Below, in pieces: positions 239-54,078 of a stretch of 64,000 nt of DNA. Where the stretch lies: contig CALZFC010000202.1 in NCBI GenBank assembly GCA_945643635.1, positions 1-64,000 of the forward strand, in the 5' to 3' direction. Both the position numbers and the translations under genes were made by a program. Within the stretch, counting starts at the first letter, position 1, and each line of letters opens with the position of its first letter. This DNA comes from Allodiplogaster sudhausi. Its lineage: Eukaryota > Nematoda > Chromadorea > Rhabditida > Diplogasteridae. The notes under the pieces were generated by a model. The model had not been told where the DNA came from. It did not search any database and saw only the letters and a list, made by a program, of their open reading frames with translations.

Positions 239-370
239 TATGCCAATTCTAAGAATGATATGATGAATGGACTATCAGTCCTAAAACCGATTTGATGAAT
301 GGACCACCAAGTCTGAAAAGTAATAATGATGATGAATGTCAATGAAGTCTGAAAAACTGTGATTATAAAT

Positions 371-449
371 CCGTCATGAGATTAATGGGACGAAACGGTT
401 CAACTGTTATATCCTGAAACAGGTTCTCATCTGATGAGTCCCGCCTGTT
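371..449 (+). ncRNA. hammerhead-core-like RNA motif, 5' unit 1 of copy 1
   Basis: In order the unit holds CCGU-C (371-375), ATGAG (376-380), TGGGAC (386-391), GAAA (392-395), CGG (396-398), AACAGG (418-423), CTCAT (426-430), CTGATGA (431-437), GTCCCG (438-443) and CCTGTT (444-449). Predicted pairings are ATGAG/CTCAT (helix I), GTCCCG/TGGGAC (helix II), CCGT/ACGG (helix III) and AACAGG/CCTGTT (extra helix IV). CUGAUGA, GAAA and the GUC at the expected cleavage position all sit between the correct helices. The three core strands appear in the order III'-I, II'-III, I'-II, which differs from canonical hammerheads and makes the fold a pseudoknot. Self-cleavage is inferred, not shown. Confidence 0.75.
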
Positions 450-548
450 AATTTATGATCATTGAATGTTTGAATTGATGAATGGACCCAGCAAGTCTAA
501 AACTGATGATGATGAATGGACCCAAGTCTGAAAACTGTGATTATAAAT

Positions 549-627
549 CCGTCATGAGATTAATGGGACGAAACGGTTACAACTGTTATGACATGAAACA
601 GGTTTCATCTGATGAGTCCCGCCTGTT
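549..627 (+). ncRNA. hammerhead-core-like RNA motif, 5' unit 2 of copy 1
   Basis: This has the same layout as the unit at 371. CCGTC is at 549-553, ATGAG at 554-558, GGGACGAAAC around 565-574, CTGATGA at 609-615 and GTCCCGCCTGTT at 616-627. Helix I closes as ATGAG with TTCAT, whose last pair is a G-U wobble where unit 1 has G-C, so pairing is kept despite the base change. The unit lies about 178 bp after the first. The spacer is built from repeated GAATGGACCACCAAGTCT-type sequence. Confidence 0.75.
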
Positions 628-731
628 AGTTTATGATCATTGGAATTTTTGAATTGATGAACGGACCACCAAGTCTAAGACTGATAATGATGAACAATCC
701 ACCATCAAGTCTGAAAACTGTGATAATAAAT

Positions 732-810
732 CCGTCATGAGATTAATGGGACGAAACGGGTAAACCATTATAACTTGAAACAGGTTCTCATCTGATGAGT
801 CCCGCCTGTT
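732..810 (+). ncRNA. hammerhead-core-like RNA motif, 5' unit 3 of copy 1
   Basis: CCGTC is at 732-736, ATGAG at 737-741, GGGACGAAACGGG around 748-760, CTCAT at 787-791, CTGATGA at 792-798 and GTCCCGCCTGTT at 799-810. All four helices of the model can form. The linker between helix III and helix IV differs from units 1 and 2, while core and helix positions are unchanged. That is the pattern expected of a selected RNA fold. Confidence 0.75.
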
Positions 811-950
811 AGTTTATGATCATTGAAATTTTGAACTGATCAATGGACCACCAAGTCTAAAAACTGATAATGATGAAGAATGCACCACCAAGTCTAAAAA
901 ATGAAGATGATGATGAATAAACCACAAGTCTGAAAACTTTGATTATGAAT

Positions 951-1025
951 CCGTCATGAGATGATTGTGACGAAATGGTTACAACCGTTATAACATGATA
1001 AAGGATCAGTGATTCGAGAACGTAT
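951..1025 (+). other. degenerate last unit of the 5' hammerhead-like array (copy 1)
   Basis: The first half is kept: CCGTC, ATGAG and GTGACGAAA, about 219 bp after unit 3. The CTGATGA strand is missing and is replaced by a GGATC..GATTC region. The corresponding unit is degenerate in the same way in copies 2 (18259) and 3 (54193), where it forms a perfect GGATC/GATCC hairpin. This unit may therefore have another role, for example as a terminal recognition hairpin, rather than being random decay. Confidence 0.55.
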
Positions 1026-1444
1026 GCCAGATGTGGCTGAATTATTTCAACTGTGATTACAATGTGTTTGAAGTCAATTTTGCGATTATTTCGCGTTATA
1101 TCGTTATGCATTTTCGTGGCGCGTTTACTTTTGTAAAGACGATTCGAAGCATATCATATTCATGTTGTGCAGTGGCACTTTGAAACTACCTCGGAGAGTA
1201 TTTTGAATTTTCATATCACGTTAAAACATAACTATCTCTAAGGAAGATTAAAGTGCCATTTGGTACGACAAAAGCATGTGAAATGGTTCGAACTGTGTTT
1301 GCGTCTAAAATCGCAGTATTTTGATTAAAAATTCGCGGCGCATTTGAAATGTATAGCAGAGAACAGGACATTTGCTTATAAACTCCTTTTGCAGGAGGTA
1401 AGCTGATTAATCTGGTTGAGTGGCCTAACTGAGTTAACTTCCAG
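1026..1444 (+). promoter_or_regulatory. 5' leader of copy 1 with a 47-bp intron (1398-1444)
   Basis: This segment is conserved in the three copies and has no long reading frame. Near its end, CTTTTGCAG (ending 1394) resembles a nematode trans-splice acceptor. GAG|GTAAGC then opens a 47-bp intron closed by AACTTCCAG at 1444, immediately before the ATG at 1445. The intron length and both splice sites fit nematode short introns. No promoter element is recognisable with confidence. Confidence 0.55.
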
Positions 1445-6830: not shown

Positions 6831-6930
6831 AGAATCATTTGTAGTTCTTGAACTAAACAAACACATTCTGTCTCGCAAGACATAACTGATTTGCGGTTGT
6901 TGATACTGCCAAAGACGATGACAGCACCAT

Positions 6931-9679
6931 TATGACAACCCCACAGTCGGGTACAAGAGAATATTACACAAATTATAAGCAACAAGCTCGAAAGGTTCAG
7001 CCGCAATTAATGCGTGCCCAGATTAATTACAGTACTCTACCGGAGCCTTATGTACTTCAGCCACAGACCAAATGTGTGCACTGCCAAGCATGGCGATGGC
7101 CCGGAGAACCAGATTCCATTGCTGCAAAGGCGGTCAAGTTAAGATCCAAGATGACTTTCCACTATTCGTGGACATTGAAGAAATGAGAAAAATTAAGGAG
7201 TACATCCTTTCGCCGGCTGGAAAAGCTACTTATGACACTGTGAGAATGATAAATTCTCCCCTATCATTTGTTTGCGCAATTATGAACACGAAAAAGAAAT
7301 CAGAGTTTCCCAAAGGAGGCCCAGTACCTTGGTTCTTAATGGGAGAATAGAAGCAACAATTGTGAGCCCTCAAGATAGCACCTCGAAGTCGAATCCTTCG
7401 TTTGTTTCACTTATCATTTGCAAAGATTCTGCTCGCGCAGAAAAGGCTTGTGCCGACTTTATGAAGAAGTACAATGTAAAGTACAATCTTGATATTTTCA
7501 TGCGAGTTTGAAATGTGATACAGGAACACAATCATCTCGCGAAATGCTATATGCGCCTGGAAGAAGTGATCGAGGAAGAGAAAAAGAAAGCTGCGGCTCG
7601 AAATAGAAAGCCCAACCAAGTCATGTTGAACATACTCGATAGAGAAGAGGCTGTGAAACAGTTCTCACCTAACATTCAAGCTGGAGGAAAAATGATTCAA
7701 GTGAATAATCCGATTCATCCTGGCAGATTGAATGAGCCACAAGGCGACAAGTTCATGTCAGCCATATACGTCTACCCAGATGGGCAGTGCCCGAGCCATG
7801 AAGAATTGAATGGTGGAGTAAGAATTTTCCAGAAATCATCTTGGACAAATAAGAAGCTTGTGCACTTTAGCCAGCTGTGGGATGCCATGAGTTATACACT
7901 TTTGTTGCCACGCGGAAACCGCACTTATAAGCTTGGAATGCCAAAGTTTATAACAATGAGCAAGAAAAATCCCCTTCCTGGGGTAAAGCCACGCGAGTTC
8001 CTCTCGCGATCTGAATACTACAATTTCACATTTGTAGATCGAGGTGACACACCCGAAGAAAGAAGAATGCATTGGTGCAGATACTGGGGTATGCTTTCCC
8101 AGCAATTCCAACTAGACGTATATTTGAGAATTCAAGCAGATCGACTGGCTGCCATAAAGAGAGAACGCGAGGAGCAAGTCAATAAGTTGGCCAAAGTGTC
8201 AGCCAATGCAAAGTATGTTCAGATGAAGCTTGAAGAAAAGGGATACGCACTTGGCAACTATGTTACCCTCCCTGAAAGCTTTTATGGAGGTCCGAAATAC
8301 TTCCGAAGACTGTACTACCAATGTGTAGCACTTTCAAAGAGATATGGCAAACCATCTCGATTCATAACATTTACCGGAAATCCAGAATGGCCGGAGATTA
8401 CGGAAATTCTGAAACTCATTTCGCCTAATATGACATGGCATGACATTGCCGATGATGTTTGCCGAATCTTTTGGCTCAAGGCAAAGGAATTTTTGAAAGA
8501 CGTCACTGAACGTGGTGTGCTTGGAGATGTTGTTGCCAACGTCTGGAACGTTGAATATCAACAGAGAGGAATGCCTCATATTCACTTATTGATCTGGTTT
8601 AAGAAAGGTCACGTTGACACTCCAGAGATCATTGACCAGACAATCAGTGCTGAGATTCCGCCTGAACCGGCCCAGGATGACCCTTATTATGAGGAGAAAA
8701 TGAGACATCGTGAACTCATTAAAAAGTGTATGATTCATGGTCCCTGTGAAGGTAAACTTGATATGACATGCCGTAAGAGGCGACCTAATGCATTCTTATG
8801 CGCGAAAAGTTACCCAAAAGGCTATCGCGATGAAACAGAAATGATTGAAAACGATTATCCGTTGTATAGACGGAGAGATAACGGAGCAAACATTGTCTAC
8901 TCAAAGGAAAGAATGCACGAGTTGCAACGAATCGACATGTTGTTCCGCACAATCCTTATCTCCTGATGAAGTATGGCTGTCACATTAATGTAGAGGCCTC
9001 TACGAGTATCTCTACATTCAAGTACATATTCAAGTACATTTTCAAGGGCGTTGACCTTCTTGCCTTGGAAATTAATGACATGGAAGAAGATGAGCTGAAT
9101 GCCAATGGCATTGTACTCAGAAATGAATACCAGAAAAAAGATGGAAAAGTCAGGCAATTGGTTGACCTTGACGAGACAAAAACTTTCCAGAATGCGAGAA
9201 GCATATCCTCAATTGAGGCTTCATACTGCAGACTTGGCCTGCCAAGGCATGGTATATCTCATTGCGTTACAGCATTGTACATTCATCTGGAAGGCGAGCA
9301 ACATATGGTTGTCAAAGCTGATGATACTGCTGCCCAGAGAGAACAAAGAGCTGAGAGAGCCATCTCCAGATTCATGGCTTTCATGGAGCTTAATACGCGT
9401 GACGAAGATGCAAGAAAATTGACTTATCTTGAAGTTGAAGAGAGATACAGATGGGATCAGAAGGCAAAGATGTACAAGCCATATGTACGTACTGGCCAGA
9501 TTGAGCGTAATATTGCATACCTGTCTCCAATCAGCCCTCGAAACAGGGAACTTTACGGACTGCACTGTCTGGTGAGAAGCCTTACAGGCTACACTTGCTT
9601 TGCTGATTTGCTTAAATCAGAAGATGGAAACACTACATATGCAACATTTGATGAGTCTGCTCGGCAAGAGGCCTTTTAG
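6931..9679 (+). pseudogene. Helitron copy 1 Rep (HUH nuclease) region, two main open segments
   Basis: A Cys/Trp-rich knuckle (CVHCQAW..., near 7070) opens the region. The Rep core follows in long open segments at 7515-8966 and 8966-9679. The HUH motif is in the 20 residues around GMPHIHLLIW. The tyrosine motif is KYIFKYIFKG, starting near 9019. Rep would nick a terminus and hold the DNA end through its tyrosines during rolling-circle transposition. Breaks include a stop in place of an Arg codon at about 7509, a frame change around 8910 where copy 2 reads through, and another at about 9665. Both catalytic signatures survive, but no single frame spans the domain. Confidence 0.8.
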
Positions 9680-11861
9680 AGATGACAAGGAGTGGGACGA
9701 ATGTCTTAATATTGCAAGCGAGACTATACCGAATCCTAGAGCATTCCTAAGACTTTTCTGCGTCATTCTGATGAATTGTCAGCCACCCAGTCCTGCGGAA
9801 TTATTTGAAAAGTACAAGGAGTACATGCTTGACCGCGATAAGCAACACAAGTATTCTGAAGAAGAGAAAGTGCAGAGAGTCCTAAGGCACATTCAATCGA
9901 TAATAAGGCACTCCAACATGACGCTCAAACAGTTTGGATTGCCTGAGCTTATAAGGAATGAAGCTCTTGAGCGAAAGTTCATGTCTGAAGACAAGAGAGA
10001 GGCCGAAAATAGAGCAGATAAAATGCAACCCACGCTAAATGACGGTCAGAAGGCAATTTCGGAGCAAATCATTGCTGCCATCTCTGACACAAGTGCCGAA
10101 AAGCGTTGCTTCTTTGTGACTGGAAGTGGAGGTTGTGAAAAGACATACCTCTACGAGTACTTAATCAATTGGTGCATTGCACACGAAAAGGTTGTTTTTA
10201 CCTGTTGCCTCAACCGGCATTGCAGCAACTCTATTGAAGAATGGTACGACCGCTCACAGTGGTTTTGGAATTCCGCTCGAATATGATGAGCTGGACAAAA
10301 CAAACCTTGACATCACCTCAGACAAGGGCCAGTTTTTGAGACAAGTTGAAGTCATCATTTGGGATGAGGCCCCAATGCAGTCGAATGCAATCTTGAGCTT
10401 TGTTGACAGAACAATGAGAGTCGCTGCACCCAGAGACCAGAAAGATAAACCATTTGGTGGACGAGTCGTTCTCCTCGGTGGAGACTGGAAGCAAATTTTG
10501 TCTGTTATACCCAGTGCTCGAGATAGACAAATCTTGAATTACACCTTGAACAATGCACCTGTCTACGACAAGTTTGAGCAGTGCAAACTGACTGTCAATA
10601 TGAGGGTCGACAAGGACCAGCAAATATTTCTGAAATATCAGACTGAAGTTGGAGAAGGAATTGCAAACATTGACGGATTACACATTCGTGTACTGAAAGA
10701 ATGCTATGCGCCGATGAGGACACACTAATAGAATCCGTGTATCCGGAGGAAGTCCGCTGCAACGGTGAAGAGATGAGCAAAAGAGCAATCCTCGCAGTTA
10801 GAAATGATGCAGTAATCAAACTAAATGAGAAGATTATGAACTTGCTACCTGGAAAAGCAGAAGAGTTTATAGGAATCACTGAGATTCCTGAAGAAGCAGA
10901 GCATATGGGCATGCCAGTAGATTTGATCTCAACCTTGGAGGCGATGACGCCCAATGGAATGCCCGCTCATAAGTTAGTTTTGAAACCACAAACACCAGTT
11001 ATGCTGCTAAGGAACATTGACATTGAGAATAAGTTGTGCAATGGCACTAAACTTGTGTTCTTGAACGCAGTGAAAGTAAACTCTGCTGACAGAAACGTCA
11101 TTCTGCTGAGATGCAGAAATGTGACTGTGAATCCACCAGAAGAGGTATTCCTGCCGAGAATCGTACAGAATTATCTCGATCGTAACAGTGGTGTACAGTT
11201 CACCCGAAGACAGTTCCCGATAAGGGCGTGCTTTGCTTGCACGATTAACAAGAGTCAAGGCCAGACATTGGCAAGAGTTGGACTCGATCTGAGAACTCCG
11301 ACATTTTCTCACGGGCATTTCTATGTGGCCATCTCGAGAGTTAAAACTGAGGCACATCTCAAACTTTTGATACCAAAAGAATTTATCACAGAAGATAAAG
11401 TGAACGGAAAGCATGCCGTTGTCAGAAATATTGTCTATCGAGACCTTTTCAAGACGGTCAATTGTGAGATCACAAACATTCCTCCTGTACTGGCTGAGGA
11501 ACCAGATGTTGACCCATTTGAGGGCTTGAATCTTGATGACGATGAAGGGGCCGAGAATGACCCCGAAGAGCATGAAGAAGACATTGAGCAAGTCCAGGAG
11601 ATTGATCAAGAACAGCTCGAAAAATATCTTGATGATTTTACTTATCAGTTGCAGCAAGAGATTGCAGCAAAGCTGAATGGCAAAGTAGCCGAGAACAAGA
11701 TAAAGGATGAGAATGCCGTTGTTAACGATGATATTGTTCAGGCAATGCCAGAAATCGATGACGAAGTTCACTTCTTTAGTGATGATGAAGTAGGCAACCT
11801 TGAGTATGTTGTATCCTCCGATGAGGAGGAGAATCTCCAAGAAGAGGAAGAAATGAACTGA
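9680..11861 (+). pseudogene. Helitron copy 1 Pif1-type helicase region (broken, Walker A altered)
   Basis: The region reads in several frames (to 10286, 10177-10728, 10701-11861). It carries GSGGCEKT at the Walker A site, IIWDEAP (Walker B), GGDWKQIL, then NKSQGQTL and FYVAISRV, the usual Helitron helicase signatures. Walker A has Glu where copies 2 and 3 have Gly just before Lys (codon near 10137), which should harm ATP binding. The C-terminus is a long acidic tail ending EEEEMN at the TGA before 11862, a low-complexity extension shared with copies 2 and 3. Confidence 0.8.
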
Positions 11862-12077
11862 AGAAAGAAGAGAGTCAAATTGCTCAGTGAGCAAGTACTT
11901 ATGAATAACTTGCAAGAGACAAATGGCGGGTAAACAACAAGTATGTGCAAATGAAATGCGTTGTTTGAATATGAAATCTAACTGCTTAATTAGCAATACG
12001 ATATGAATATCTTGCAAGATACGAATGGCAGATAAATTTGTTTTTTGAATGACTAATTAAATATTTTCAAACAAAAT

Positions 12078-12159
12078 CCCGTCGCGAGATTAAAGGGGCG
12101 AAACGGGTTTACATGTAAAAATATTGCCAGGTTCTCGCCTGATGAGTTCCCCGCCTGGC
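12078..12159 (+). ncRNA. hammerhead-core-like RNA motif at the 3' end of Helitron copy 1
   Basis: In order: CCCGT-C (12078-12083), GCGAG, AGGGGC, GAAA (12100-12103), CGGG, GCCAGG (12126-12131), CTCGC (12134-12138), CTGATGA (12139-12145), GTTCCCC and GCCTGGC (to 12159). The layout matches the 5' units but the stems differ in sequence. Helix I is GCGAG/CTCGC instead of ATGAG/CTCAT, helix IV is GCCAGG/CCTGGC instead of AACAGG/CCTGTT, and helix III gains a C-G pair. These are compensatory changes. Helix II is weaker here, with two G-U pairs. Confidence 0.75.
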
Positions 12160-12204
12160 ACAATTATTTTCGCGAACATGTGCACACATTTATTTGCCTA
12201 CCGA

Positions 12205-15200
12205 TGCCGGTTCGGAGTCGCGCACGGGCAAACCGTTTTGCGCGCTTTTATAAAAGTCCCTATTAAATTTAAACAATGCTAGGACATAGAAAAGACTCCA
12301 AGGGAGATAATGGGCAAAGATACTGAAACCAGGTCCCCCCATAGCTCCGCTAGTTAGAGTGTATACTTAGAAACGCTTGTTCAATATTGACTGGGTTTGC
12401 GCGGAGCGGCGTCGTGGGCGGTGGGAGTGAGATTTTGGAGTGGGGTTTTTTTTAGGATGGAAAATGAATATTGGGGCTACGATATGGTATTGGTTTGGGA
12501 TTTTTGGGTTTTGGTTTTGGGGTCGGCGCCGGCGGCCAAAGTTGCACCTTTTTGGCGCGCGCTTGCGCTGGGTTGGACACTTTGAGCGATTGCATCTTTT
12601 GAACGGAGAGGAATTGGTGAATGAAAAAATATGAGTCGATAGCCCATGTCTTAATTATTAAGATTCCTGGTTGGTTTTGGTGATAGTGCCTCAGGGGTGG
12701 CCCAGGGGGCGTGGCCAAATTTTGACCCCCTTTTTTGGCCCTTTTTTACTCTGTTTTTTCTCACTATCGAAAATTCTGTAGGTACGTTTTTCGATTTACG
12801 AACATATATGATGTAGTTTTTCAAGGCGCATCTTCTGATCTATTGATCTGCTCCATAGCCCACCCAGATCGATAGATACAGGGCAAAAACAGGCGGACCC
12901 ATTTTGTTAGGAGCGAACATTTGAAAAATCAATACTCGAAGATTTAGGATCGGAGCGGGACGGGACATTCAGAATATTGTTTAGTTTTTGGAGAGCTTTG
13001 AAATGAGCCTACTCACGTTTGGCTGGGTTTCGGAAAAGGTGTCCTGAGGGGGCCGTGAAATGTCAAATTTTTGGAGGCCATTTTCGTGCTGTTTTTTCTC
13101 GGGGATTGGTATTATGCCTACATGTTATATATCATTCTGTAGCTCTCGAGAAGGCGAACAAATGTCTCATACAAAACGTTTTCATATAACGACATTTTTG
13201 ATCTACTTTTGGGGTCAGAATGTTTAGGCCACTTTTTCGACCTTAGCTATCACTGACACTTTTTGGGGCATATTTTTATTAAGATAGAGCCTAAAATTAG
13301 CTATCGAATGATAGGTTTATCATCGGTATTGATTCAGGCATATTCGAGATATGAATTATTTTGTGCTTTTTGGTGCATTTTCATGGTACGCAGATTTTCT
13401 AACGACCCAGGTTCGGAGTCGCGCGCGGGCAAACCCTTTTGCGCGCTTTTATATGACCCCCAAGCAAAGATTAAAATGCTAGGACATAGAAAAGACTCCA
13501 AGGGAGATAATGGGCAAAGATACTGAAACCAGGTCCCCCCATAGCCTCCGCTAGTTAGAGAGTGTACTTAGAAACGCTTGTCCATTATTGCCGGGTTTGC
13601 GCGGAGCGGCGTCGTGAGCGGTGGAAGTGAGATTTTGGGGTGGGTTTTTTTTAGGATGGTAAATGAATATTGGAGCTACGTTTTGGTATTGGTTTGGGAT
13701 TTTTGGGTTTTGGGTTTGGGGGTGGCGCCAGTGGTCAAAGTTGCAACTTTTCGGCGCGCGCTTGCGCTGGGTTGGCCACTTTGAGCTATTGGATCTTTTG
13801 AACGGAGAGGAGTTGGGGAATGAAAAAAATATGAGTCGATAGCCCATGTCTTAATTATTAAGATTCCTGGTCGGTTTGTTGATAGTGCCTCAGGGGTGAC
13901 CAGGGGGCGTGGCCAAATTTTGACCCTTTTTTGGCCCCTTTTTGCTCTGTTTTTGCTCACTAACTTGAATTTTCAAAATTAACTTTTTCTCTTTTCCGAC
14001 GTATATGATGTAGTTTTGCACGGCGCATGTTTTGATATATAATTGTCGGGCTAAATACATTGGGTCATATCGATCGGGGCAAAAACAGGCGGACCCATTT
14101 TGTTAGGGGCGAACCTTTCAAAATTCAATACTCGGAGATTTGGGATTGGAGCGAGACGGGACATTCAGAATATTGTTCAGTTTTACGAGAGCTTTGGAAT
14201 GAGCCTACTCCCGTTTGGCTGGGTTTCGGAAAAGGTGGCCTGAGGGGGCCGTGAAATCTCAAATTTTTGGGAGGCCCTTTCCGCGGCTGTTTTTTCTCGG
14301 GGATTGGTATTATGCCTACATGTTATATATCATTATGTAGCTCTGGAGATGGCGAACAAATGTGTCATACAAAGGTTTTGATATTTCGATGTTTTTGATC
14401 TACTTTTGGGGTCAGAATGTTCAGGCCACTTTTTCGACCTTAGCTATCACTGACACTTTTTGGGGCATATTTTTATTCGAATAGAGCCTAAAATTAGCTA
14501 TCGAATGATAGGTTGATCATCGGTATTGGTTCAGGCATATTCGAGATATGAATTATTTTGTGGCTTTTTGGTACATTTTCATCACACACAGATTTTCTAA
14601 CGACCCAGGTTCGGAGTCGCGCGCGGCAAACCCTTTTGCGCGCTTTTGTGTGAAAACCTAATTAAACAAAACCAATGCTAGGACATAGCGGAGACTCCAA
14701 GGGAGATAATGGGCAAAGATACTGAAACCAGGTCCCCCCATAGCTCCGCTAGTTAGAGAGTATACTTAGAAACGCTTGTGGTTTATTTACGGGGGTTGCG
14801 CGGAGCGGCGTGGTGGGCGGGGGAGTTGAGATTTTCGAGTGGGGTTTTTGTAGGATGGTAAATGATATTGGAGCTACGTTTTGGTATTGGTTTGGGATTT
14901 TTGGGTTTTGGGTTTGGGGGTGGCGCCAGTGGTCAAAGTTGCAACTTTTCGGCGCGCGCTTACGCTGGGTTGGCCATTTTGAGCAATTGGATCTTTTGAA
15001 CGGAGAGGAATTGTTTAACGAAAAAAATGAGTCGATAGCCCATCTCTTAATTATTAAGATTCCTGGTTGGTTAGTTGATAGTGAATCAGGGGTGGCCAGG
15101 GGGCGTGGCCCAACTTTTACCCCCTTTTTTGGCCCTTTTTTGCTCTGTATTTGCTCACTTTCTCAAAATCCCTCTTGTCGATTTTTGATTTTAAGACTTA

Positions 15201-15995: not shown

Positions 15996-15998
15996 CGG

Positions 15999-18012: not shown

Positions 18013-18062
18013 TCTGCCAAATCTAAGAATGATAATGATGAATGGACTATCAAGTGAATGGA

Positions 18063-18141
18063 CCGTCATGAGATTAATGGGACGAAACGGTTACAGCTGT
18101 TATAACATGAAACAGGTTCTCATCTGATGAGTCCCGCCTGT
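18063..18141 (+). ncRNA. hammerhead-core-like RNA motif, 5' unit of copy 2
   Basis: CCGTC is at 18063-18067, followed by ATGAG, then TGGGAC and GAAA. AACAGG and CTCAT precede CTGATGA at 18124-18130, and GTCCCGCCTGT follows. All four helices of the permuted hammerhead model form. Only one complete unit is present, against three in copy 1 and two in copy 3, so the number of units varies between copies. Confidence 0.75.
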
Positions 18142-18189
18142 AATTTTATGATCACTGAATTTTTGAATTGTTGAATGGACCACCAAGTC

Positions 18190-18330
18190 TAAAAACTGAT
18201 GATGATGATGATGATGATGATGAATAAACCACCAAGTCTGAAAACTATGATTATGAATCCATCACGAGATTAATGTGACGAAACGATTACAACTGTTATA
18301 ACATGATAAAGGATCAGTGATCCGAGAACC
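18190..18330 (+). other. GAT microsatellite and degenerate hammerhead-like unit of copy 2
   Basis: A GAT repeat (about 18199-18222) is followed by CCATC (18259-18263), ACGAG and GTGACGAAAC. The CTGATGA strand is absent, and the hairpin GGATC/GATCC occurs at about 18310-18323. Helix III is no longer well paired. The equivalent in copy 3 (54193) is nearly identical. Confidence 0.55.
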
Positions 18331-18712
18331 TATATCAGATGTGGCAGTATTATTTCAACAGTGATTGCAATGCATTTGAAGTCAATTTTGCGATTATTTC
18401 GCGTTATATCGTTATGCATTCTCGTGGCGCGTTTACTTTTGTGAAGACGCACACACGATTCGAAGCATGTCATATTCATGTTGTGCAGTGGCACTTTGAA
18501 ACTACCTCGGAGAGTATTTTGAATGTTCATATCACGTTAAAACATAACTATCTCTAAGGAAATTAAAGTGCCATTTGGTACGATAAACATGTGAAATGGT
18601 TCGAACTGTGTATGTGTCTAAAATCGCAGTATTTTGATCAAATAATTCGCGGCGCATTTGAAATGTATAGCGGAGAACAGGACATTTGCTTAATAAACTC
18701 CTTTTGCAGGAG

Positions 18713-21763: not shown

Positions 21764-24093
21764 TGTTGTATAAATCGACTCTATTGTCGATGTTCATAGA
21801 GGATGATGAACGCACAAAGAAAGAATCCGTCATGCGATCTGACAAACGGAAATCCCTTGAATCCTCAAGTACAGTTAATGAAAGCAGCCCGCGTATTACG
21901 CGTAGCAGAAGTCGAACTCCTCTTTCTGCTGAAAGGCAATTTAATTGTGTTAACAATATGACACCTATCAAGGTTGCATTGCCTTGTACGAACAAGGAAT
22001 CCTTAACCAAGCGAATTGTTCAGACACCAAAACGAAAAAGCGATTTCACAGATATTGCATGTTCTCTTAAGAAACGAAGAGAAGGTATTTCTGAAAGCCC
22101 ATCTGTTTTGCTTTCACAAATGAGCGATTTGCACATCATTAAAACCCCGGCGAGTCCAACTCCCGGGAGAAAGAGGAAAGCTGAACATGAAGTAGAACCC
22201 TCACCATCAACCATTTTATGTGGTATGAATCATTTGAATGTTAGTACTCCAAAGCGAGTTTCAACGAGACAGCCGAAAAAACTGTTTGTGCCCTATCAGG
22301 CTCAATTTTCCACGGCCAAGTCCGATGCTCCAATCGCAACGATGTCATACGACAGTTTAAAAAAGCTAGACGGCAATCAGTGGTTGAATGATGAAGTTGT
22401 TCACTGTGCTATACAAGCAATTTGCTACGGCAAGAATGTTTTCCTGATTGATCCGGTTCAGTATGAAAGATACTGTAGAAATCCAGACAGCATGCAAAAG
22501 TTGAGAACAAACAACTACAGCAATTATGATATGATTATGTTTCCATTGGTCAATGATAACCACTTTAAGTTAAGTGTCATAAACATGTCGTCGCCAAGCT
22601 TTGTCATGGTTTACGACTCGCTGAATAAACTTGACCGGAATGAATTGTACAGAATTCAAAAGTGTATTCACCACTTAACCGGACTTCAAGTAATGGCCGC
22701 CCCTTCGGGTGACAATCTTACCACTCTGCAAAGTGATGGTTATAATTGTGGTCCAATTACTATTTTTCACGCTTTGCAAATTGTTAATAATCGGCCGACA
22801 GTTGTGCCGCATTTTGATGTTGCTTCTTTCAGAAAGCAGTTGAAGCACTATTTGCAGACATGCAAGTTGATTAAGATAGCTGGAGGAATCGAAAAAAATG
22901 TTACTCCTGATTGCACTCCTAGATCTAGAAGATCGAGCTCACGCTCTTCCATCGGCTCTGTAGCATCAATGAGAAGTGTGGCATCATCCAAAATGTCAGA
23001 TGAAAGCGACTATTCAAGTGAGTCACTTGAAATGCTTAAAAAGTTTGGCTGGGTACATCAGCCTCGAAGAGGTAAACCAGAGATCTCAGTATCAGCAATA
23101 TCACTATATGCTGCGTATACAAGAGGACATTTTGATAGCTCTATTATTGAAGCGATGTTAAAAGTCCTGGTTGCCGAGTCAAGGCAAAACATTTTTGTGC
23201 TTTCGAATACCGAAGTAATGGAATGCATTTTGAGTAATAAAGCTCCTGAGAACCTGAGTAAGATGAAATATAAAATTGCATTTGTTCCGCTGAATGATCA
23301 AAATGAATGGATCCTTGGAGTGATAGAGACACATCCTGAGATTACAATTCGACTCTACGACAAAGACCGGAGAGATACTGTTATGGCACAATTATCTAAA
23401 TTTGTGGAGATAGCATTTGGCAAGCCAGAAGTAATGGATAAGAAAAAGTCCAATCAAGTATGCAAGTACTCAACTCCAGAAGAGTCGGCTCCTGCTCTAT
23501 TCTTTAATGCGGAACAGTACTTGTTCGATTTGGCAAAACAGAGAAAGAAGAAATTTGACGAGTTTAAATCTGAAGTATACCGCGAAATCATCACTAAGAT
23601 GTTGATTGACTCAAAGATGGTCAGAATATGTGCCCAAAGAGATACCGCAGCCAAGGAAGTTGTGCAGATAATTCCATTCAAGTGTATCGATTTGAGCGAT
23701 AGAGATATCTCTTTTCTATCAGAAGAAAACGATCAATTGAGTGATGTAATTATCAACAAGTTTGCGATCGGTCTCAATTCAAATAAGCGATATGTTGTCC
23801 TACCACTTGATGCTTTTAAAAGCGATGGAAGACTAGAAGGCTTTAATGTTGGAAAAAGACAGGGCATATTAATGCCTGTCAAGAAAACATCAGGCGAATA
23901 CGCGCTGATTGTCATTAAGGAACAGAAAGCATATGTCTATGATCCGTACATCCCAGCCGTTGGAAGCGAATTTTCTGAGAAAATTAAGCAAGTAGCATCG
24001 TACTACAATCGAAACAGAGCAAGTTGCGCACTGAAGAAAAGTATCCAGTCATTCAAAGTCCGTCATCTACCGGAATATATGTGTGTGCACTAA
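21751..24093 (+). CDS. Helitron copy 2 polyprotein part C: Ulp1-like units 5, 6 and most of 7
   Basis: This is a 780-residue open segment. Residues 20-190 are a Ser/Arg/Lys-rich linker with nuclear-localisation-like patches (TPKRKS, GRKRK). Unit 5 is the clearest C48 domain: DGNQWLNDEV at 207-216, His271 (NDNHF), Asp289 (VYDS), Gln327 and Cys333 (YNCGP). A Ser/Arg-rich linker (385-445) follows. Unit 6 keeps Asp537 (LYDKD) but has Glu519-Trp where His-Trp is expected and no Cys. Unit 7 has Tyr717 for His and Asp731 (VYDPY); its end lies in part D. Units 6 and 7 are therefore probably non-catalytic. A one-base loss near 24040 ends this frame. Confidence 0.75.
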   Translation: MLQLMLYKSTLLSMFIEDDERTKKESVMRSDKRKSLESSSTVNESSPRITRSRSRTPLSAERQFNCVNNMTPIKVALPCTNKESLTKRIVQTPKRKSDFTDIACSLKKRREGISESPSVLLSQMSDLHIIKTPASPTPGRKRKAEHEVEPSPSTILCGMNHLNVSTPKRVSTRQPKKLFVPYQAQFSTAKSDAPIATMSYDSLKKLDGNQWLNDEVVHCAIQAICYGKNVFLIDPVQYERYCRNPDSMQKLRTNNYSNYDMIMFPLVNDNHFKLSVINMSSPSFVMVYDSLNKLDRNELYRIQKCIHHLTGLQVMAAPSGDNLTTLQSDGYNCGPITIFHALQIVNNRPTVVPHFDVASFRKQLKHYLQTCKLIKIAGGIEKNVTPDCTPRSRRSSSRSSIGSVASMRSVASSKMSDESDYSSESLEMLKKFGWVHQPRRGKPEISVSAISLYAAYTRGHFDSSIIEAMLKVLVAESRQNIFVLSNTEVMECILSNKAPENLSKMKYKIAFVPLNDQNEWILGVIETHPEITIRLYDKDRRDTVMAQLSKFVEIAFGKPEVMDKKKSNQVCKYSTPEESAPALFFNAEQYLFDLAKQRKKKFDEFKSEVYREIITKMLIDSKMVRICAQRDTAAKEVVQIIPFKCIDLSDRDISFLSEENDQLSDVIINKFAIGLNSNKRYVVLPLDAFKSDGRLEGFNVGKRQGILMPVKKTSGEYALIVIKEQKAYVYDPYIPAVGSEFSEKIKQVASYYNRNRASCALKKSIQSFKVRHLPEYMCVH

Positions 24094-27000
24094 TGCACGC
24101 ATTGTCTGTTGACAGCAAAGATATGCCTAAGAGCGTTGAGTCCAAGGCTGTGAAGAGAATTATTTGTCAAGTTCTCGAACTAAACGAACATATTTCAGTC
24201 TCACCAGACATAACTAATAAAATAGTTGTTGATAATGAAATCCCAGTTGTGACAACCCCACAGTCGGGAACGAAAGAATATAAAACAAAGCATAAGCAAC
24301 GAGCTCGCACTGTTCAACCGCAACTCATGCGTGCTCAGATTAATTACAGTACTCTACCGGAGCCTTATGTACTTCCGCAACAGATCAAATGCGTGCACTG
24401 TAAAGCATGGCGATGGCCCGGTGAACCAGATTCCATTTGCTGCAAAGGCGGTCAAGTTAAGATCCAAGATGATTTTCCACTATTCGTGGACATTGAAGAA
24501 ATGAGAAAAATAAAAGAGTACATCCTTTCACCGGCTGGAAAAGCTACTTATGACACTGTGAGAATGATAAATTCTCCCCTATCATTTGTTTGCGCCATTA
24601 TGAACACGAAAAAGAAATCAGAGTTTCCCAAAGGAGGCCCAGTACCCTTGGTTCTTAATGGGAGAATAGAGGCAACAATTGTGAGCCCTCAAGATAGCAC
24701 CTCGAAGTCGAATCCTTCGTTTGTTTCACTCATCATTTGCAAGGATTCTGCTCGAGCAGAAAAGGCTTGTGCCGACTTTATGAAGAAATACAATGTAAAG
24801 TACAACCTTGATATTTTCATGCGAGTTCGAAATGTGATACAGGAACACAATCATCTCGCGAAATGCTATGTGCGCCTGGAAGAAGTGATCCAGGAAGAGA
24901 AAAAGAAAGCTGAGGCACGGAATAGAAAGCCCAACCATGTTATGTTGAACATTCTTGATAGAGAGGAGGCTGTGAAGCAGTTCTCACCGAACATTCAAGC
25001 TGGAGGAAAAATGATTCATGTGAATCCTCCCATTCATCCTGGCAGATTGAATGAGCCACAAGGCGACAAGTTTATGTCAGCCATATACGTCTACCCAGAT
25101 GGACAGTGCCCAAGCCACGAAGATTTGAATCGTGGAGTAAGAATTTTCCAGAAATCATCTTGGACAAATAAGAAGCTTGTGCACTTTAGCCAGCTGTGGG
25201 ATGCCATGAGTTATACACTTTTGTTGCCACGCGGAGTCCGCACTTACAAGCTTGGAATGCCCAAGTTTATAACAATGAACAAGAGAAATCCCCTTCCTGG
25301 GGTAAAGCCACGCGAGTTCCTCTCGCGATCTGAATATTACAATTTCACGTTCGCAGATAAAGGTAATACACCCGAAGAAAGAAGAATGCATTGGTGCAGA
25401 TACTGGGGTATGCTTACCCAGCAATTCCAACTAGACGTATATTTGAGAATTCAAGCAGATCGACTGGCTGCCATAAAGAGAGAACGCGAGGAGCAAGTCA
25501 ATAAGTTGGCCAAAGTGTCAGCAAATGCAAAGTATGTTCAGATGAAGCTTGAAGAAAAAGGATACGCACTTGGCAACTATGTCACACTCCCTGAAAGCTT
25601 TTATGGAGGCCCGAAATACTTCCGAAGACTGTACTACCAATGTGTAGCACTTTCAAAGAGATATGGCAAACCATCTCGCTTCATAACATTTACTGGAAAT
25701 CCAGAATGGCCGGAGATTACGGAAATTCTGAAACTCATCTCGCCTAATATGACATGGCATGACATTGCCGATGATGTGTGCCGAATCTTTTGGCTCAAGG
25801 CAAAAGAATTTTTGAAAGACGTCACTGAACGTGGTGTACTTGGAGAAGTGGTTGCCAACGTCTGGAACGTTGAATATCAACAGAGAGGAATGCCTCATAT
25901 TCACCTGTTGATCTGGTTTAAGAAAGGCCATGTTGACACTCCAGAGATCATTGATCAGACAATCAGTGCTGAGATTCCGCCTGAACCTGCCCGGGATGAC
26001 CCTTATTATGAGGAGAAAATGAGACATCGTGAACTCATTAAAAAGTGTATGATTCATGGTCCCTGTGAAGGTAAACTTGATATGACATGTCGTAAGAGGC
26101 GACCTAATGCATTCTTATGCGCGAAAAGTTACCCAAAAGGCTATCGCGATGAAACAGAAATGATTGAAAACGATTATCCGTTGTATAGACGGAGAGATAA
26201 CGGAGCAAACATTGTCTACTCAAAAGGAAAGAATGTACGAGTTGCAACGAATCGACATGTTGTTCCGCACAATCCATATCTCCTGATGAAGTATGGCTGT
26301 CACATTAATGTAGAGGCCTCTACAAGTATCTCTACATTCAAGTACATTTTCAAGTACATATTCAAGGGCGTTGACCTTCTAGCCTTGGAAATTGATGATA
26401 TGGAAGAGGAAGAGTTGAATGCCAATGGCATTGTACTCAGAAATGAATATCAGAAAAAAGATGGAAAAGTCAGGCAATTGGTTGATCTTGACGAGACAAA
26501 GACTTTCCAGAATGCCAGAAGCATATCCTCAATTGAGGCTTCATACTGCAGACTTGGCCTGCCAAGGCATGGTATATCTCATTGCGTTACAGCATTGTAC
26601 ATTCATCTGGAAGGCGAGCAACATATGGTTGTCAAAGCTGATGATACTGCTGCCCAGAGAGAACAAAGAGCTGAGAGAGCCATCTCCAGATTCATGGCTT
26701 TCATGGAGCTTAATACGCGTGACGAAGATGCAAGAAAATTGACATATCTTGAAGTTGAAGAAAGATACAGATGGGATCAGAAGGCAAAGATGTACAAGCC
26801 ATATGTGCGTACTGGCCAGATTGAACGTAATAATGCGTACCTATCTCCCATCAGCCCCCGAAACAGGGAACTTTACGGACTGCACTGTCTGGTGAGAAGC
26901 CTTACAGGCTACACTTGCTTTGCTGATTTGCTTAAATCAGAAGATGGAAACACTACATATGCAACCTTTGATGAGTCGGCTCGGGCAAGAGGCCTTTTGA

Positions 27001-27659
27001 GAGATGACAAGGAATGGGACGAATGTCTTAACCTTGCAAGCGAATCTATACCGAATCCAAGAGCATTCCTGCGACTTTTCTGCGTCATTCTGATGAATTG
27101 TCAGCCGCCCAGTCCGGCAGAACTATTTGAAAAGTACAAGGTGCACATGCTTGACCGTGATAAGCAGAAAAAGTATTCTGAAGAAGAGAAAGAGCAGAGA
27201 ATCCTCAGGCACATTCAGTCGATAATAAGGCACTCTAACATGACGCTCAAGCAGTTTGGATTGCCTGAGCTTATAAGGAATGAAGCTCTTGAGCGAAAGT
27301 TCATGTCTGAAGACAAGAGAGATGCTCAAAGGAGAGCAGATGAGATGCAACCCACGCTAAATGACGGCCAGAAGGCAATTTCGGAGCAAATCATTGCTGC
27401 CATCTCAGACGCAAGTGCCGAAAAGCGTTGCTTCTTTGTGACTGGAAGTGGAGGTTGTGGAAAGACATACCTCTACGAGTACTTAATCAATTGGTGCATT
27501 GCACACGAAAAGGTTGTTTTACCTGTTGCCTCAACCGGCATTGCAGCAACTCTATTGAAGAATGGTACGACCGCTCACAGTGGTTTGGAATTCCGCTCGA
27601 ATATGATGAGCTGGACAAAACAAACCTTGACATCACCTCAGACAAGGGCCAGTTTTTGA
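24024..27659 (+). CDS. Helitron copy 2 Rep nuclease with N-terminal helicase (RepHel), part D
   Basis: This is the longest open segment, 1,211 residues. Residues 8-27 (IQS...STGIYVCALMHAL) complete Ulp1-like unit 7, with Thr at the Cys position. A zinc-knuckle-like block, CVHC...WRWPGEPDSICC, follows at about 122-142 and resembles the Cys-rich block before Rep in other Helitrons. The Rep HUH motif is His625-Ile-His627 in GMPHIHLLIW. The two tyrosines are Tyr774 and Tyr778 in KYIFKYIFKG, the Y2 arrangement. Walker A, GSGGCGKT, is at 1141-1148. Rep should nick single strands at the element ends. A lost T near 27585 moves the rest of the helicase into the next frame, so the last 25 or so residues are out of frame. 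Confidence 0.85.
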   Translation: MRTEEKYPVIQSPSSTGIYVCALMHALSVDSKDMPKSVESKAVKRIICQVLELNEHISVSPDITNKIVVDNEIPVVTTPQSGTKEYKTKHKQRARTVQPQLMRAQINYSTLPEPYVLPQQIKCVHCKAWRWPGEPDSICCKGGQVKIQDDFPLFVDIEEMRKIKEYILSPAGKATYDTVRMINSPLSFVCAIMNTKKKSEFPKGGPVPLVLNGRIEATIVSPQDSTSKSNPSFVSLIICKDSARAEKACADFMKKYNVKYNLDIFMRVRNVIQEHNHLAKCYVRLEEVIQEEKKKAEARNRKPNHVMLNILDREEAVKQFSPNIQAGGKMIHVNPPIHPGRLNEPQGDKFMSAIYVYPDGQCPSHEDLNRGVRIFQKSSWTNKKLVHFSQLWDAMSYTLLLPRGVRTYKLGMPKFITMNKRNPLPGVKPREFLSRSEYYNFTFADKGNTPEERRMHWCRYWGMLTQQFQLDVYLRIQADRLAAIKREREEQVNKLAKVSANAKYVQMKLEEKGYALGNYVTLPESFYGGPKYFRRLYYQCVALSKRYGKPSRFITFTGNPEWPEITEILKLISPNMTWHDIADDVCRIFWLKAKEFLKDVTERGVLGEVVANVWNVEYQQRGMPHIHLLIWFKKGHVDTPEIIDQTISAEIPPEPARDDPYYEEKMRHRELIKKCMIHGPCEGKLDMTCRKRRPNAFLCAKSYPKGYRDETEMIENDYPLYRRRDNGANIVYSKGKNVRVATNRHVVPHNPYLLMKYGCHINVEASTSISTFKYIFKYIFKGVDLLALEIDDMEEEELNANGIVLRNEYQKKDGKVRQLVDLDETKTFQNARSISSIEASYCRLGLPRHGISHCVTALYIHLEGEQHMVVKADDTAAQREQRAERAISRFMAFMELNTRDEDARKLTYLEVEERYRWDQKAKMYKPYVRTGQIERNNAYLSPISPRNRELYGLHCLVRSLTGYTCFADLLKSEDGNTTYATFDESARARGLLRDDKEWDECLNLASESIPNPRAFLRLFCVILMNCQPPSPAELFEKYKVHMLDRDKQKKYSEEEKEQRILRHIQSIIRHSNMTLKQFGLPELIRNEALERKFMSEDKRDAQRRADEMQPTLNDGQKAISEQIIAAISDASAEKRCFFVTGSGGCGKTYLYEYLINWCIAHEKVVLPVASTGIAATLLKNGTTAHSGLEFRSNMMSWTKQTLTSPQTRASF

Positions 27660-29173
27660 GACAAGTTGAAGTCATCATTTGGGATGAGGCCCCAATGCAG
27701 TCGAATGCAATCTTGAGCTTTGTTGACAGAACAATGAGAGTCGCTGCACCCAGAGACCAGAAAGATAAACCATTTGGTGGACGTGTCGTTCTCCTCGGTG
27801 GGGACTGGAAGCAAATTTTGCCTGTTATACCCAGTGCTCGAGATAGACAAATCTTGAATTACACACTGAACAATGCACCTGTTTACGACAAGTTTAAGCA
27901 GTGCAAACTGACTGTCAACATGAGGGTCGACAAGGACCAACAAATATTTCTGAAATATCAGACTGAAGTTGGAGAAGGAACTGCAAACTTTGACGGATTG
28001 CACATTCGTGTACCTGAAAGAATGCTATGCGCCGATGAGGACGCACTAATAGAATCCGTGTATCCGGAGGAAGTCCGCTGCAACGGTGAAGAGATGAGCA
28101 AAAGAGCAATCCTCGCAGTTAGAAATGATGCAGTAATCAAACTAAATGAGAAGATTATGAACTTGCTACCTGGAAAAGCAGAAGAGTTTATAGGAATCAC
28201 TGAGATTCCTGAAGAAGCAGAGCATATGGGCATGCCAGTAGATTTGATCTCAACCTTGGAGGCGATGACGCCCAATGGAATGCCCGCTCATAAGTTAGTT
28301 TTGAAACCACAAACACCAGTTATGCTGCTAAGGAACATTGACATTGAGAATAAGTTGTGCAATGGCACTAAACTTGTGTTCTTGAACGCAGTGAAAGTAA
28401 ACTCTGCTGACAGAAACGTCATTCTGCTGAGATGCAGAAATGTGACTGTGAATCCACCAGAAGAGGTATTCCTGCCGAGAATCGTGCTGAACTATCTCGA
28501 TCGTAACAGTGGTGTACAATTCACAAGAAGACAGTTCCCGATAAGGGCGTGCTTTGCTTGCACGATTAACAAGAGTCAAGGCCAGACATTGACAAGAGTG
28601 GGACTTGATCTAAGAACTCCGACATTTTCTCACGGGCACTTCTATGTGGCCATCTCGAGAGTTAAAACTGAGGCACATCTCAAACTTTTGATACCAAAAG
28701 AATTTATCACAGAAGATAAAGTGAACGGAAAGCATGCCGTTGTCAGAAATATTGTCTATAGAGACCTTTTCAAGACGGTCAATTGTGAGATCACAAATAT
28801 TCCTCCTGTACTGGCTGAGGAACCAGATGTTGACCCATTTGAGGGCTTGAATCTTGATGACGATGTCGGGGCCGAGAATGACCCCGAAGAGCATGAAGAA
28901 GACATTGAGCAAGTCCAGGAGATTGATCAAGAACAGCTCGAAAAAGATCTTGATGATTTTACTTATCAGTTGCAGCAAGAGATTGCAGCAAATGGCAAAG
29001 TAGCCGAGAACAAGATAACGGGTGAGAATGCCGTTGTTAACGATGATGTACAGGCAATGCCAGAAATCGATGACGAAGTTCACTACTTTAGTGATGATGA
29101 AGAAGGCAACCTTGAGTATGTTGTATCCTCCGATGAGGAGGAGAATCTCCAAGAAGAGGAAGAAATGAACTGA
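27428..29173 (+). CDS. Helitron copy 2 Pif1-type helicase, C-terminal part E
   Basis: The authentic helicase frame resumes about 27586. The residues before that are an overlapping wrong frame. Seen in order: IIWDEAPM (Walker B), RVVLLGGDWKQILPVIP, FKQCKLTVNMRV, the insert with the EFIGITEIPEE region, then ACFACTINKSQGQTL and HGHFYVAISRVK (motifs V and VI). This SF1B helicase should unwind the element strand during rolling-circle transfer. After the helicase, about 140 residues form an acidic tail rich in Glu and Asp, ending EEEEMN. It is conserved in the three copies and has no family I recognise. The stop is TGA/29173, and about 190 bp of 3' sequence separates it from the first 3' hammerhead-like unit. 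Confidence 0.85.
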   Translation: MLLCDWKWRLWKDIPLRVLNQLVHCTRKGCFTCCLNRHCSNSIEEWYDRSQWFGIPLEYDELDKTNLDITSDKGQFLRQVEVIIWDEAPMQSNAILSFVDRTMRVAAPRDQKDKPFGGRVVLLGGDWKQILPVIPSARDRQILNYTLNNAPVYDKFKQCKLTVNMRVDKDQQIFLKYQTEVGEGTANFDGLHIRVPERMLCADEDALIESVYPEEVRCNGEEMSKRAILAVRNDAVIKLNEKIMNLLPGKAEEFIGITEIPEEAEHMGMPVDLISTLEAMTPNGMPAHKLVLKPQTPVMLLRNIDIENKLCNGTKLVFLNAVKVNSADRNVILLRCRNVTVNPPEEVFLPRIVLNYLDRNSGVQFTRRQFPIRACFACTINKSQGQTLTRVGLDLRTPTFSHGHFYVAISRVKTEAHLKLLIPKEFITEDKVNGKHAVVRNIVYRDLFKTVNCEITNIPPVLAEEPDVDPFEGLNLDDDVGAENDPEEHEEDIEQVQEIDQEQLEKDLDDFTYQLQQEIAANGKVAENKITGENAVVNDDVQAMPEIDDEVHYFSDDEEGNLEYVVSSDEEENLQEEEEMN

Positions 29174-29363: not shown

Positions 29364-29445
29364 CCCGTCGCGAGATTAAAGGGGCGAAACGGGTTTACAT
29401 ATATGCATATTGCCAGGTTCTCGCCTGACGAGATCCCCGCCTGGC
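29364..29445 (+). ncRNA. hammerhead-core-like RNA motif, first 3' unit of copy 2
   Basis: CCCGTC is at 29364-29369, then GCGAG, GGGGC, GAAAC, GCCAGG, CTCGC, CTGACGA at 29425-29431, GATCCCC and GCCTGGC. The change T to C within CTGANGA falls at the one position that is free to vary in hammerheads (N7), which supports the assignment. Helix II has an A-G mismatch at its second pair. Helices I, III and IV are perfect. Confidence 0.75.
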
Positions 29446-29508: not shown

Positions 29509-29590
29509 CCCGTCGCGAGATTAAAGGGGCGAAACGGGTACATACGTACAAATTTAGCCAAGTTCTCGCCTGACGAGTTCCCCGCCTGGC
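29509..29590 (+). ncRNA. hammerhead-core-like RNA motif, second 3' unit of copy 2
   Basis: CCCGTC is at 29509-29514, then GCGAG, GGGGC, GAAACGGG, GCCAAG, CTCGC, CTGACGA at 29570-29576, GTTCCCC and GCCTGGC. One mismatch occurs in helix IV. The unit is 145 bp downstream of the first, with an AT-rich spacer. This tandem duplication at the 3' end is not present in copy 1. Confidence 0.7.
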
Positions 29591-48491: not shown

Positions 48492-48539
<48 letters not shown>

Positions 48540-53768: not shown

Positions 53769-53817
53769 CTGCCAAATCTAAGAATGATAATGATGAATGG
53801 ACTATCAAGTGAATGGA

Positions 53818-53897
53818 CCGTCATGAGATTAATGGGACGAAACGGTTACAGCTGTTATAACATGAAACAGGTTCTCATCTGATGAGTCCCGCCTGTT
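53818..53897 (+). ncRNA. hammerhead-core-like RNA motif, 5' unit 1 of copy 3
   Basis: CCGTC is at 53818-53822, then ATGAG, TGGGAC, GAAAC, AACAGG, CTCAT, CTGATGA at 53879-53885, and GTCCCGCCTGTT. All helices of the permuted hammerhead model form, as in copy 1 unit 1. Confidence 0.75.
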
Positions 53898-54000
53898 AGT
53901 TTATGATCATTGAATTTTTGAATTGATGAACGGACCACCAAGTATAAAGACTGATAATGATGACAATGGACCATCAAGTCTGAAAACGATGATTATAAAT

Positions 54001-54078
54001 CCGTCATGAGATTAATGGGACGAAACGGTTACAACTATTATAACATGAACAGGTTCTCATCTGATGAGTCCCGCCTGT
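54001..54078 (+). ncRNA. hammerhead-core-like RNA motif, 5' unit 2 of copy 3
   Basis: CCGTC is at 54001-54005, then ATGAG, TGGGAC, GAAAC, AACAGG, CTCAT, CTGATGA at 54061-54067, and GTCCCGCCTGT. The linker between helices III and IV is slightly different from the neighbouring unit. All core bases are conserved. Confidence 0.75.

What the first reader, a model, noticed from the sequence alone, without database searches (positions are those of the whole stretch)
371..810. Strand-permuted hammerhead ribozyme core repeated in the Helitron 5' region
Seen: each of three units contains CUGAUGA, GAAA and a GUC, each flanked by arms that pair as hammerhead helices I (AUGAG/CUCAU), II (GUCCCG/UGGGAC) and III (CCGU/ACGG). 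A fourth helix (AACAGG/CCUGUU) closes the free ends of I and II. Known: natural hammerheads use the cyclic strand order I'-CUGANGA-II, II'-GAAA-III, III'-UH-I. Here the linear order is III'-UC-I, II'-GAAA-III, I'-CUGAUGA-II, the reverse cyclic order, so helices I and II bridge two junctions as a pseudoknot. Inference: because the far ends of helices I and II lie close together in hammerhead folds, the short AUUAA linker is sterically plausible, and the RNA may cut after GUC. I know of no described hammerhead with this connectivity.
Basis: partly seen in the sequence, partly recalled or inferred. Interest (0 to 1): 0.92.

Follow-up and report, generated by a model that had tools for sequence, protein, structure and literature searches.

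The report
Permuted hammerhead ribozymes bracketing Helitron genes
A rearranged form of the hammerhead, a small RNA predicted to cut itself, is encoded many times in the genome of an unidentified organism and brackets the genes of its Helitron jumping DNA; the rearrangement was already published from environmental RNA, but this home in DNA is likely new.

Summary
In detail: each unit carries CUGANGA, GAAA and GUC with helices I, II, III and a fourth helix, in the order site-GAAA-CUGANGA. The claim that no such hammerhead is described is wrong: Eckert et al. 2023 (PMC10085705) named this order type SGC, predicted 583 and saw five cleave. What seems new is the home. The window holds nine copies, three of them past Helitron helicase genes and outside the finding. 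The 352-Mb genome has 133 pattern matches (2 for the backwards control). In 61 distinct copies 95.8% of pair cells are standard (at most 89.6% in 1000 shuffles), with changes on both sides at 8 of 21 pairs; a conventional order fits 1 of 61. The same pattern in viral and prokaryotic DNA never pairs (0 of 69, 0 of 79). Of 28 groups of 5'-type copies, 23 are followed on the same strand by a 3'-type group, median 11.3 kb; 18 of 20 sampled regions upstream of 3' copies match the Helitron Rep protein (42-97% identity). Best reading: type-SGC ribozymes predicted to cut Helitron transcripts on both sides of the coding region. Cleavage, role and host are untested or unknown.

The parts
370..449 (+). 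type-SGC unit 1 of the element-1 5' array; predicted cut after 375
548..627 (+). type-SGC unit 2; predicted cut after 553; of the 61 distinct copies the only one that can also be drawn in a conventional order (GSC)
731..810 (+). type-SGC unit 3; predicted cut after 736
942..1020 (+). broken last unit of the array: S and G blocks partly kept, CUGANGA block replaced by a GGATCAGTGATTC stretch
7515..11861 (+). element-1 Helitron Rep and helicase reading frames, in several pieces
   Evidence: Pfam Helitron_like_N and Pif1_2B_dom
12078..12159 (+). type-SGC copy past the helicase ORF of element 1 (stem I GCGAG/CUCGC, fourth helix GCCAGG/CCUGGC); predicted cut after 12083
12295..12353 (+). Helitron-like 3' tail ending CTAG, followed by T
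18062..18141 (+). type-SGC unit at the 5' side of element 2; predicted cut after 18067
24024..29173 (+). element-2 Helitron Rep and PIF1 helicase ORFs (two overlapping frames)
29364..29445 (+). first type-SGC copy at the 3' side of element 2 (N7 = C; two-letter bulge in stem II); predicted cut after 29369
29509..29590 (+). second type-SGC copy at the 3' side of element 2; predicted cut after 29514
53817..53897 (+). type-SGC unit 1 at the 5' side of element 3; predicted cut after 53822
54000..54078 (+). type-SGC unit 2 at the 5' side of element 3; predicted cut after 54005; the 3' copies of this element lie just outside the window at contig positions 64040 and 64186

Best explanation
These repeats match the type-SGC hammerhead ribozyme in block order, core letters and covarying helices, lie on both sides of the coding region of Helitron transposons, and are predicted to cut the element's RNA after GUC. 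The S and G blocks form one hairpin closed by stem III, the C block a second hairpin closed by the fourth helix, and the two loops pair through stems I and II to build the hammerhead core (pairing supported by covariation; the three-dimensional fold is predicted). Cutting at the last 5' unit and the first 3' unit would free an RNA of about 11.3 kb (737-12083, 18068-29369) that holds the Rep and helicase ORFs, with a 5'-OH and a 2',3'-cyclic phosphate, parted from the upstream repeat array and the 3' tail (inferred). Such ends could be joined by a host RNA ligase into a circle, as retrozyme RNA is, or the cuts could uncap and shorten the mRNA and so limit expression (both inferred, not told apart here). 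Tandem 5' units would also release RNA monomers of about 180 nt (inferred).
For: The motif in this order at nine places in the window, and 133 pattern matches in the genome against 2 for the backwards control. Among 61 distinct copies, at positions the search left free: stem I AUGAG/CUCAU, AUCAG/CUGAU, GCGAG/CUCGC; stem II second pair G-C 26, A-U 35, and GAGAC/GUCUC in L212 and L236; fourth helix fifth pair C-G 36, U-A 10, A-U 13; 95.8% of cells standard, reached by 0 of 1000 shuffles. The G-to-C linker is more variable (mean entropy 0.78 and 0.69 bits in the two classes) than stem letters (I 0.14 and 0.05; II' 0.16 and 0.05; II 0.00 and 0.28, its first G fixed by the search). Pattern hits elsewhere do not pair: 0 of 69 viral, 0 of 79 prokaryotic, against 45 of 53 own. 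5'-type groups followed by 3'-type groups in 23 of 28 cases, median 11,302 nt. The window's Rep protein matches on the ribozyme strand in 18 of 20 sampled regions, at 42-63% identity in 11 of them. The same connectivity cleaves in vitro at the predicted site in five tested examples (PMC10085705).
Against: No cleavage test and no RNA evidence. Monomers with broken core letters stand in the same arrays (seen in L182, L219 and L227). Copies are related, so shuffles overstate significance and the independent changes are a handful. 8 of 53 own hits fail the strict pairing test. The sixth pair of the fourth helix is standard in only 41 of 61. For the two units folded, the pseudoknot-free minimum-energy structure has the fourth helix but not stems I and II; in the 5' type CUCAUCUGAUGAG forms a competing hairpin. 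13 of 36 3'-type groups have no listed 5' partner and 5 of 28 5'-type groups no listed 3' partner (from 100 of 133 places). Rfam at gathering scores: no match; that its hammerhead models follow the conventional order is recalled.
Confidence: 0.86

Rival explanations
1. The units are conventional type-II (GSC) hammerheads whose site block lies in the linker (ACGGUU-AC-AACUGU-U-AUGA), and the upstream CCGUC match is a by-product.
For: Unit 548-627 can be drawn this way with stems of 4, 6 and 6 bp.
Against: It fits 1 of 61 distinct copies, against 57 of 61 in SGC order. The linker is the most variable part, and stem I covaries between the upstream S block and the C block.
Confidence: 0.03
2. The conserved folds act as DNA: subterminal hairpins or protein-binding repeats used by the Helitron Rep/helicase in rolling-circle transposition, with no RNA cleavage.
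For: They sit towards both ends of a rolling-circle DNA transposon, in tandem, next to arrays of other hairpins.
Against: The covarying helices are pseudoknotted and meet exactly at the letters of the hammerhead core; a DNA role does not predict that.
Confidence: 0.06
3. Relics: ribozymes picked up by an ancestral element and carried along, with no present role.
For: Broken monomers in arrays and copies without a partner.
Against: Rep proteins near the copies have diverged to 42-63% identity in 11 of 18 matched regions, while units of those places still pair in all four helices. Core conservation itself was not measured without search bias.
Confidence: 0.1
4. The UGAUGA and CUGA motifs are boxes of C/D snoRNA-like repeats rather than a ribozyme.
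For: 30 of 31 permissive Rfam matches in 230-1040 are to C/D snoRNA families.
Against: All are below their gathering scores (highest 24.7 against 50), and most lie mainly in the spacers. It does not explain GUC, GAAA and four covarying helices.
Confidence: 0.02

Closest known systems
Type-SGC hammerhead ribozymes, HRIMA-1 motif and variants (Eckert et al. 2023, PMC10085705; text parts 1-6 of 8 read; the rest of the references and the supplement not)
   Same: Block order, core letters, 5-bp stem I, helix joining the outer sides of I and II, about 80 nt, short I-to-II linker, 0-44 nt between stem III and the fourth helix (here 9-20 by the parse).
   Different: [quoted passage not shown] Here they are encoded in a large genome, in Helitrons, in tandem arrays and on both sides of the coding region. 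The I-to-II linker is 5-6 nt against typically 3.
Hammerheads of Penelope-like elements, Terminons and retrozymes (PMC6431247 and PMC4918198: passages; PMC9695139: abstract start in a listing)
   Same: Hammerheads in terminal parts of mobile elements; retrozyme transcripts are cut by the LTR ribozyme and circularised.
   Different: Those are retroelements, with conventional strand order (recalled); this is a rolling-circle DNA transposon with a permuted one.
HDV-like ribozyme of R2 retrotransposons (PMC3774820: abstract start in a listing)
   Same: A ribozyme at the 5' end that frees element RNA from a longer transcript.
   Different: Another ribozyme fold, and a retroelement.

Membership tests
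type-SGC hammerhead ribozyme | blocks in the order S (III'-UH-I), G (II'-GAAA-III), C (I'-CUGANGA-II) | tested here: met
   strict scan fits 57 of 61 distinct copies
type-SGC hammerhead ribozyme | core letters CUGANGA, GAA, A15.1-U16.1, H17, G-C at 10.1-11.1 | tested here: met
   Present in all parsed copies, but nearly all fixed by the search, so conservation is not measured; 11.1 was free and is C in 60 of 61
type-SGC hammerhead ribozyme | covarying stems I, II and III | tested here: met
   I and II covary. Stem III was fixed by the pattern over 4 bp and so not tested there; its fifth pair is standard in 49 of 61
type-SGC hammerhead ribozyme | helix joining the outer sides of stems I and II | tested here: met
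   Three Watson-Crick types at its fifth pair, 59 of 61 standard; sixth pair only 41 of 61
type-SGC hammerhead ribozyme | short linker from stem I to stem II, typically 3 nt | tested here: inconclusive
   Six letters (AUUAA plus one) in 59 of 61, seven in 2
type-SGC hammerhead ribozyme | self-cleavage after H17 | not testable with these tools
   needs transcription and a gel
Helitron | Rep (HUH) and PIF1-type helicase | tested here: met
   In the window PF14214 E 6e-41 and PF05970 E 3e-27. 18 of 20 sampled regions match the Rep protein, the best alignment overlapping the Rep domain (residues 456-630) in 16 of the 18; the helicase was not tested outside the window
Helitron | 3' end CTRR followed by T of the host AT target (rule recalled) | tested here: met
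   CTAG then T with differing flanks in L204, L208, L223, L226 and at window 12353; not found past the 3' copies of element 2
Helitron | 5' end TC and 3' subterminal hairpin | not tested
   5' boundary hidden by satellite arrays
conventional hammerhead (types I, II, III) | cyclic order C, G, S | tested here: not met
   fits 1 of 61 distinct copies, by an alternative site block

The most novel reading that the evidence does not exclude
These Helitrons have an RNA stage: paired type-SGC hammerheads cut the whole coding transcript out as an 11-kb RNA with ligatable ends, which the host joins into a circle. A rolling-circle DNA transposon would thus also make ribozyme-defined circular RNA, and this would be the first genomic home of permuted hammerheads and a possible source of those seen as environmental RNA.
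Probability: 0.2. Interest if true: 0.85.

Novelty: new variant of a known kind. Interest (0 to 1): 0.62.

Why it matters
Type-SGC hammerheads were reported from environmental RNA of unknown hosts. A genome that encodes many of them in identifiable transposon families gives them a setting, a phylogeny and testable biology, and it puts self-cleaving ribozymes on a DNA rolling-circle transposon. Searches for Helitron with hammerhead ribozyme or with self-cleaving gave seven different papers; passages of three and the abstract starts of the other four do not report this, in an open-licence library without preprints.

Tried and rejected
Conventional hammerhead order: rejected (1 of 61). Rfam at gathering score: nothing. 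A permissive search gave one conventional type-I hammerhead match across two units (425-593, 15.2 bits against a cut-off of 34), taken as a by-product of shared blocks. IMG/VR scans: the exact C block, 0. A loose SGC pattern gave 45 stretches; an order-blind scan of those loci gave 123 conventional BAC fits and 5 in SGC order, of which L007, L009, L010 and L030 by eye show a conventional site block beside the G block and L016 looks like chance. The own-genome pattern gave 69 viral and at least 119 prokaryotic stretches (80 loci listed); of 69 and 79 hits checked none pairs in stems I and II. Host: the best named relative of the Rep protein is from the nematode Cylicostephanus goldi at 35% identity, followed by proteins of other nematodes, plants, vertebrates and a springtail, so no host is claimed. 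The Ulp1-like ORF found no homologue. Searches of the own genome for COX1, PF14214 and conventional hammerheads (RF00008) did not complete.

Full report
OBSERVATION. The blocks run S (CCGU-C-AUGAG), AUUAA, G (UGGGAC-GAA-ACGG), a linker (9-20 nt by the parse), then C (AACAGG-UU-CUCAU-CUGAUGA-GUCCCG-CCUGUU). A scan of the window that is blind to block order finds fits on the + strand only; besides the SGC fits it lists cross-unit combinations in other orders at a span of 150. At a span of 110 it gives 8 SGC fits and one conventional fit. Of 400 dinucleotide-preserving shuffles, 3 hold an SGC fit; all six orders together gave 48 fits in the 400. A ninth copy (29365) escapes the strict scan because stem II there has a two-letter bulge (GAUCCCC against GGGGC).

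ALREADY DESCRIBED TOPOLOGY. Eckert et al. 2023 (PMC10085705; parts 1-6 of 8 read) found the HRIMA-1 motif in metatranscriptomes and named this order type SGC. They report 407 HRIMA-1 and 176 variant sequences, a linker of typically three nucleotides joining stem I to stem II, a helix binding the other sides of I and II, full-length constructs of 79 and 81 nt, and cleavage at the predicted place in five examples. Rates are 0.007-0.13 per min for the five, and 0.051-0.19 for three shortened forms. Disrupting and restoring each of the four stems of SGC-3 abolished and regained cleavage. [quoted passage not shown]

GENOME-WIDE SURVEY. The genome of the window has 351.8 Mb in 382 contigs; the window is the start of a 64.75-kb contig. 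The pattern CCGTC-N10-20-GAAACGG-N15-45-CTGANGAG has 133 matches, against 2 for the pattern read backwards (100 places listed). Loci in hand cover 93 of the 100 listed places (not one place on C140, one on C163, two on C174 and three on C214). They give 74 distinct flanked units, of which 71 parse and 61 are distinct over the ribozyme. The three dropped are L218, which looks like a chance hit, and L202 and L203, with altered ends of the C block. The pattern fixes the S, G and C core letters, so only free positions count as evidence. These show stem I as AUGAG/CUCAU, AUCAG/CUGAU and GCGAG/CUCGC; stem II pair 2 as G-C (26) or A-U (35), where the 3' type was aligned with a two-letter bulge; GAGAC/GUCUC in two copies; and the fifth pair of the fourth helix as C-G (36), U-A (10) or A-U (13). 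Standard pairs fill 95.8% of cells. Shuffling partners gives 88.2% on average and at most 89.6% in 1000 trials.

AGAINST THE STRUCTURE, from the same table: four non-standard cells in stem I (two G-A; two U-C in L212 and L236, which pair if one U is bulged), 7 in stem II, 12 in the fifth pair of stem III, and 31 in the fourth helix, 20 of them in its outermost pair. Copies are related, so the independent events are a handful and not dozens. The S-to-G linker AUUAA is nearly invariant (59 of 61) although the pattern did not fix it; the G-to-C linker is variable (the linker entropies use only units of the commonest length, 20 of 33 and 16 of 26). Monomers with broken core letters stand in some arrays (L182, L219, L227), so core conservation without search bias remains unmeasured.

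CONTROLS. A conventional order fits 1 of 61 distinct copies, SGC 57 of 61.

SETTING. Among the 100 listed places there are 28 groups of 5'-type copies (three of them the divergent GCGUG form); 23 are followed on the same strand by a 3'-type group within 30 kb, at 448 to 25,134 nt, median 11,302. Five have none, 13 of 36 3'-type groups have no listed 5' partner, and in 5 cases a 3'-type group is followed by another 5'-type group within 30 kb. I sampled 20 regions 3-4.6 kb upstream of 3'-type copies (16 of paired, 4 of unpaired groups). The Rep protein of the window matches on the ribozyme strand in 18 (15 of 16 and 3 of 4), at 42-63% identity in 11 and 75-97% in 7; the best alignment overlaps the Rep domain in 16. 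L426 and L443 have no match. In the window the domains are Helitron_like_N and PIF1. A tail ending CTAG followed by T, with different flanks beyond, lies about 250-400 bases past several 3' copies, as expected of a Helitron 3' end (rule recalled). It was not found past the 3' copies of element 2 before 40751, and one tandem-repeat copy (40751) lacks the final G.

HOW IT LIKELY WORKS. Shown: order, covariation, position, orientation, and co-occurrence with Helitron Rep genes across diverged families. Inferred: RNA self-cleavage after GUC, by analogy with the tested SGC ribozymes. Further inferred: two cuts would free an RNA of about 11.3 kb with the ORFs, bearing ends that an RNA ligase could join; or the cuts limit expression of the transposase. 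I cannot separate these. Not every unit of an array needs to work.

LITERATURE. Searches for hammerhead ribozyme with Helitron, Helitron with self-cleaving, hammerhead with DNA transposon, with nematode and transposable element, with permuted and pseudoknot, and for non-circular permutation and the type-SGC name listed no title or abstract start that reports ribozymes in Helitrons or genomic type-SGC copies. I saw listings, passages of PMC6431247, PMC4918198 and PMC12477314, and the main text of PMC10085705. The library holds open-licence papers only and no preprints.

Noticed in passing
16284-18016, 48509-53771, 61-240: Satellite arrays of a 211-bp unit made of successive hairpins (CCCTTGTG...CACAAGGG, GGTGGG...CCCACC, GGTGAGAGT...ACTCTCACC) interspersed with (CT)n, just upstream of the 5' ribozyme units.
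   Followed up: partly
240-360, 476-540, 842-940: Spacers between ribozyme units are repeats like TTGATGAATGGACCACCAAGTCTGAAAA, with C-box-like UGAUGA and D-box-like CUGA; only sub-threshold C/D snoRNA matches.
   Followed up: partly
12199-15998 and 40608-47376: Tandem repeats of about 1.2 kb; several copies include the Helitron-like 3' tail ending CTAG, as if element ends had been amplified.
   Followed up: partly
18912-20357: ORF with a weak Ulp1 (C48) protease match between the 5' ribozyme and the Rep gene of element 2; no homologue found in the protein search.
   Followed up: partly
L180 (G000:C1:7613724-7614567, - strand): A place where 5'-type and 3'-type ribozymes lie only 448 nt apart, likely an internally deleted Helitron that kept both.
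   Followed up: no
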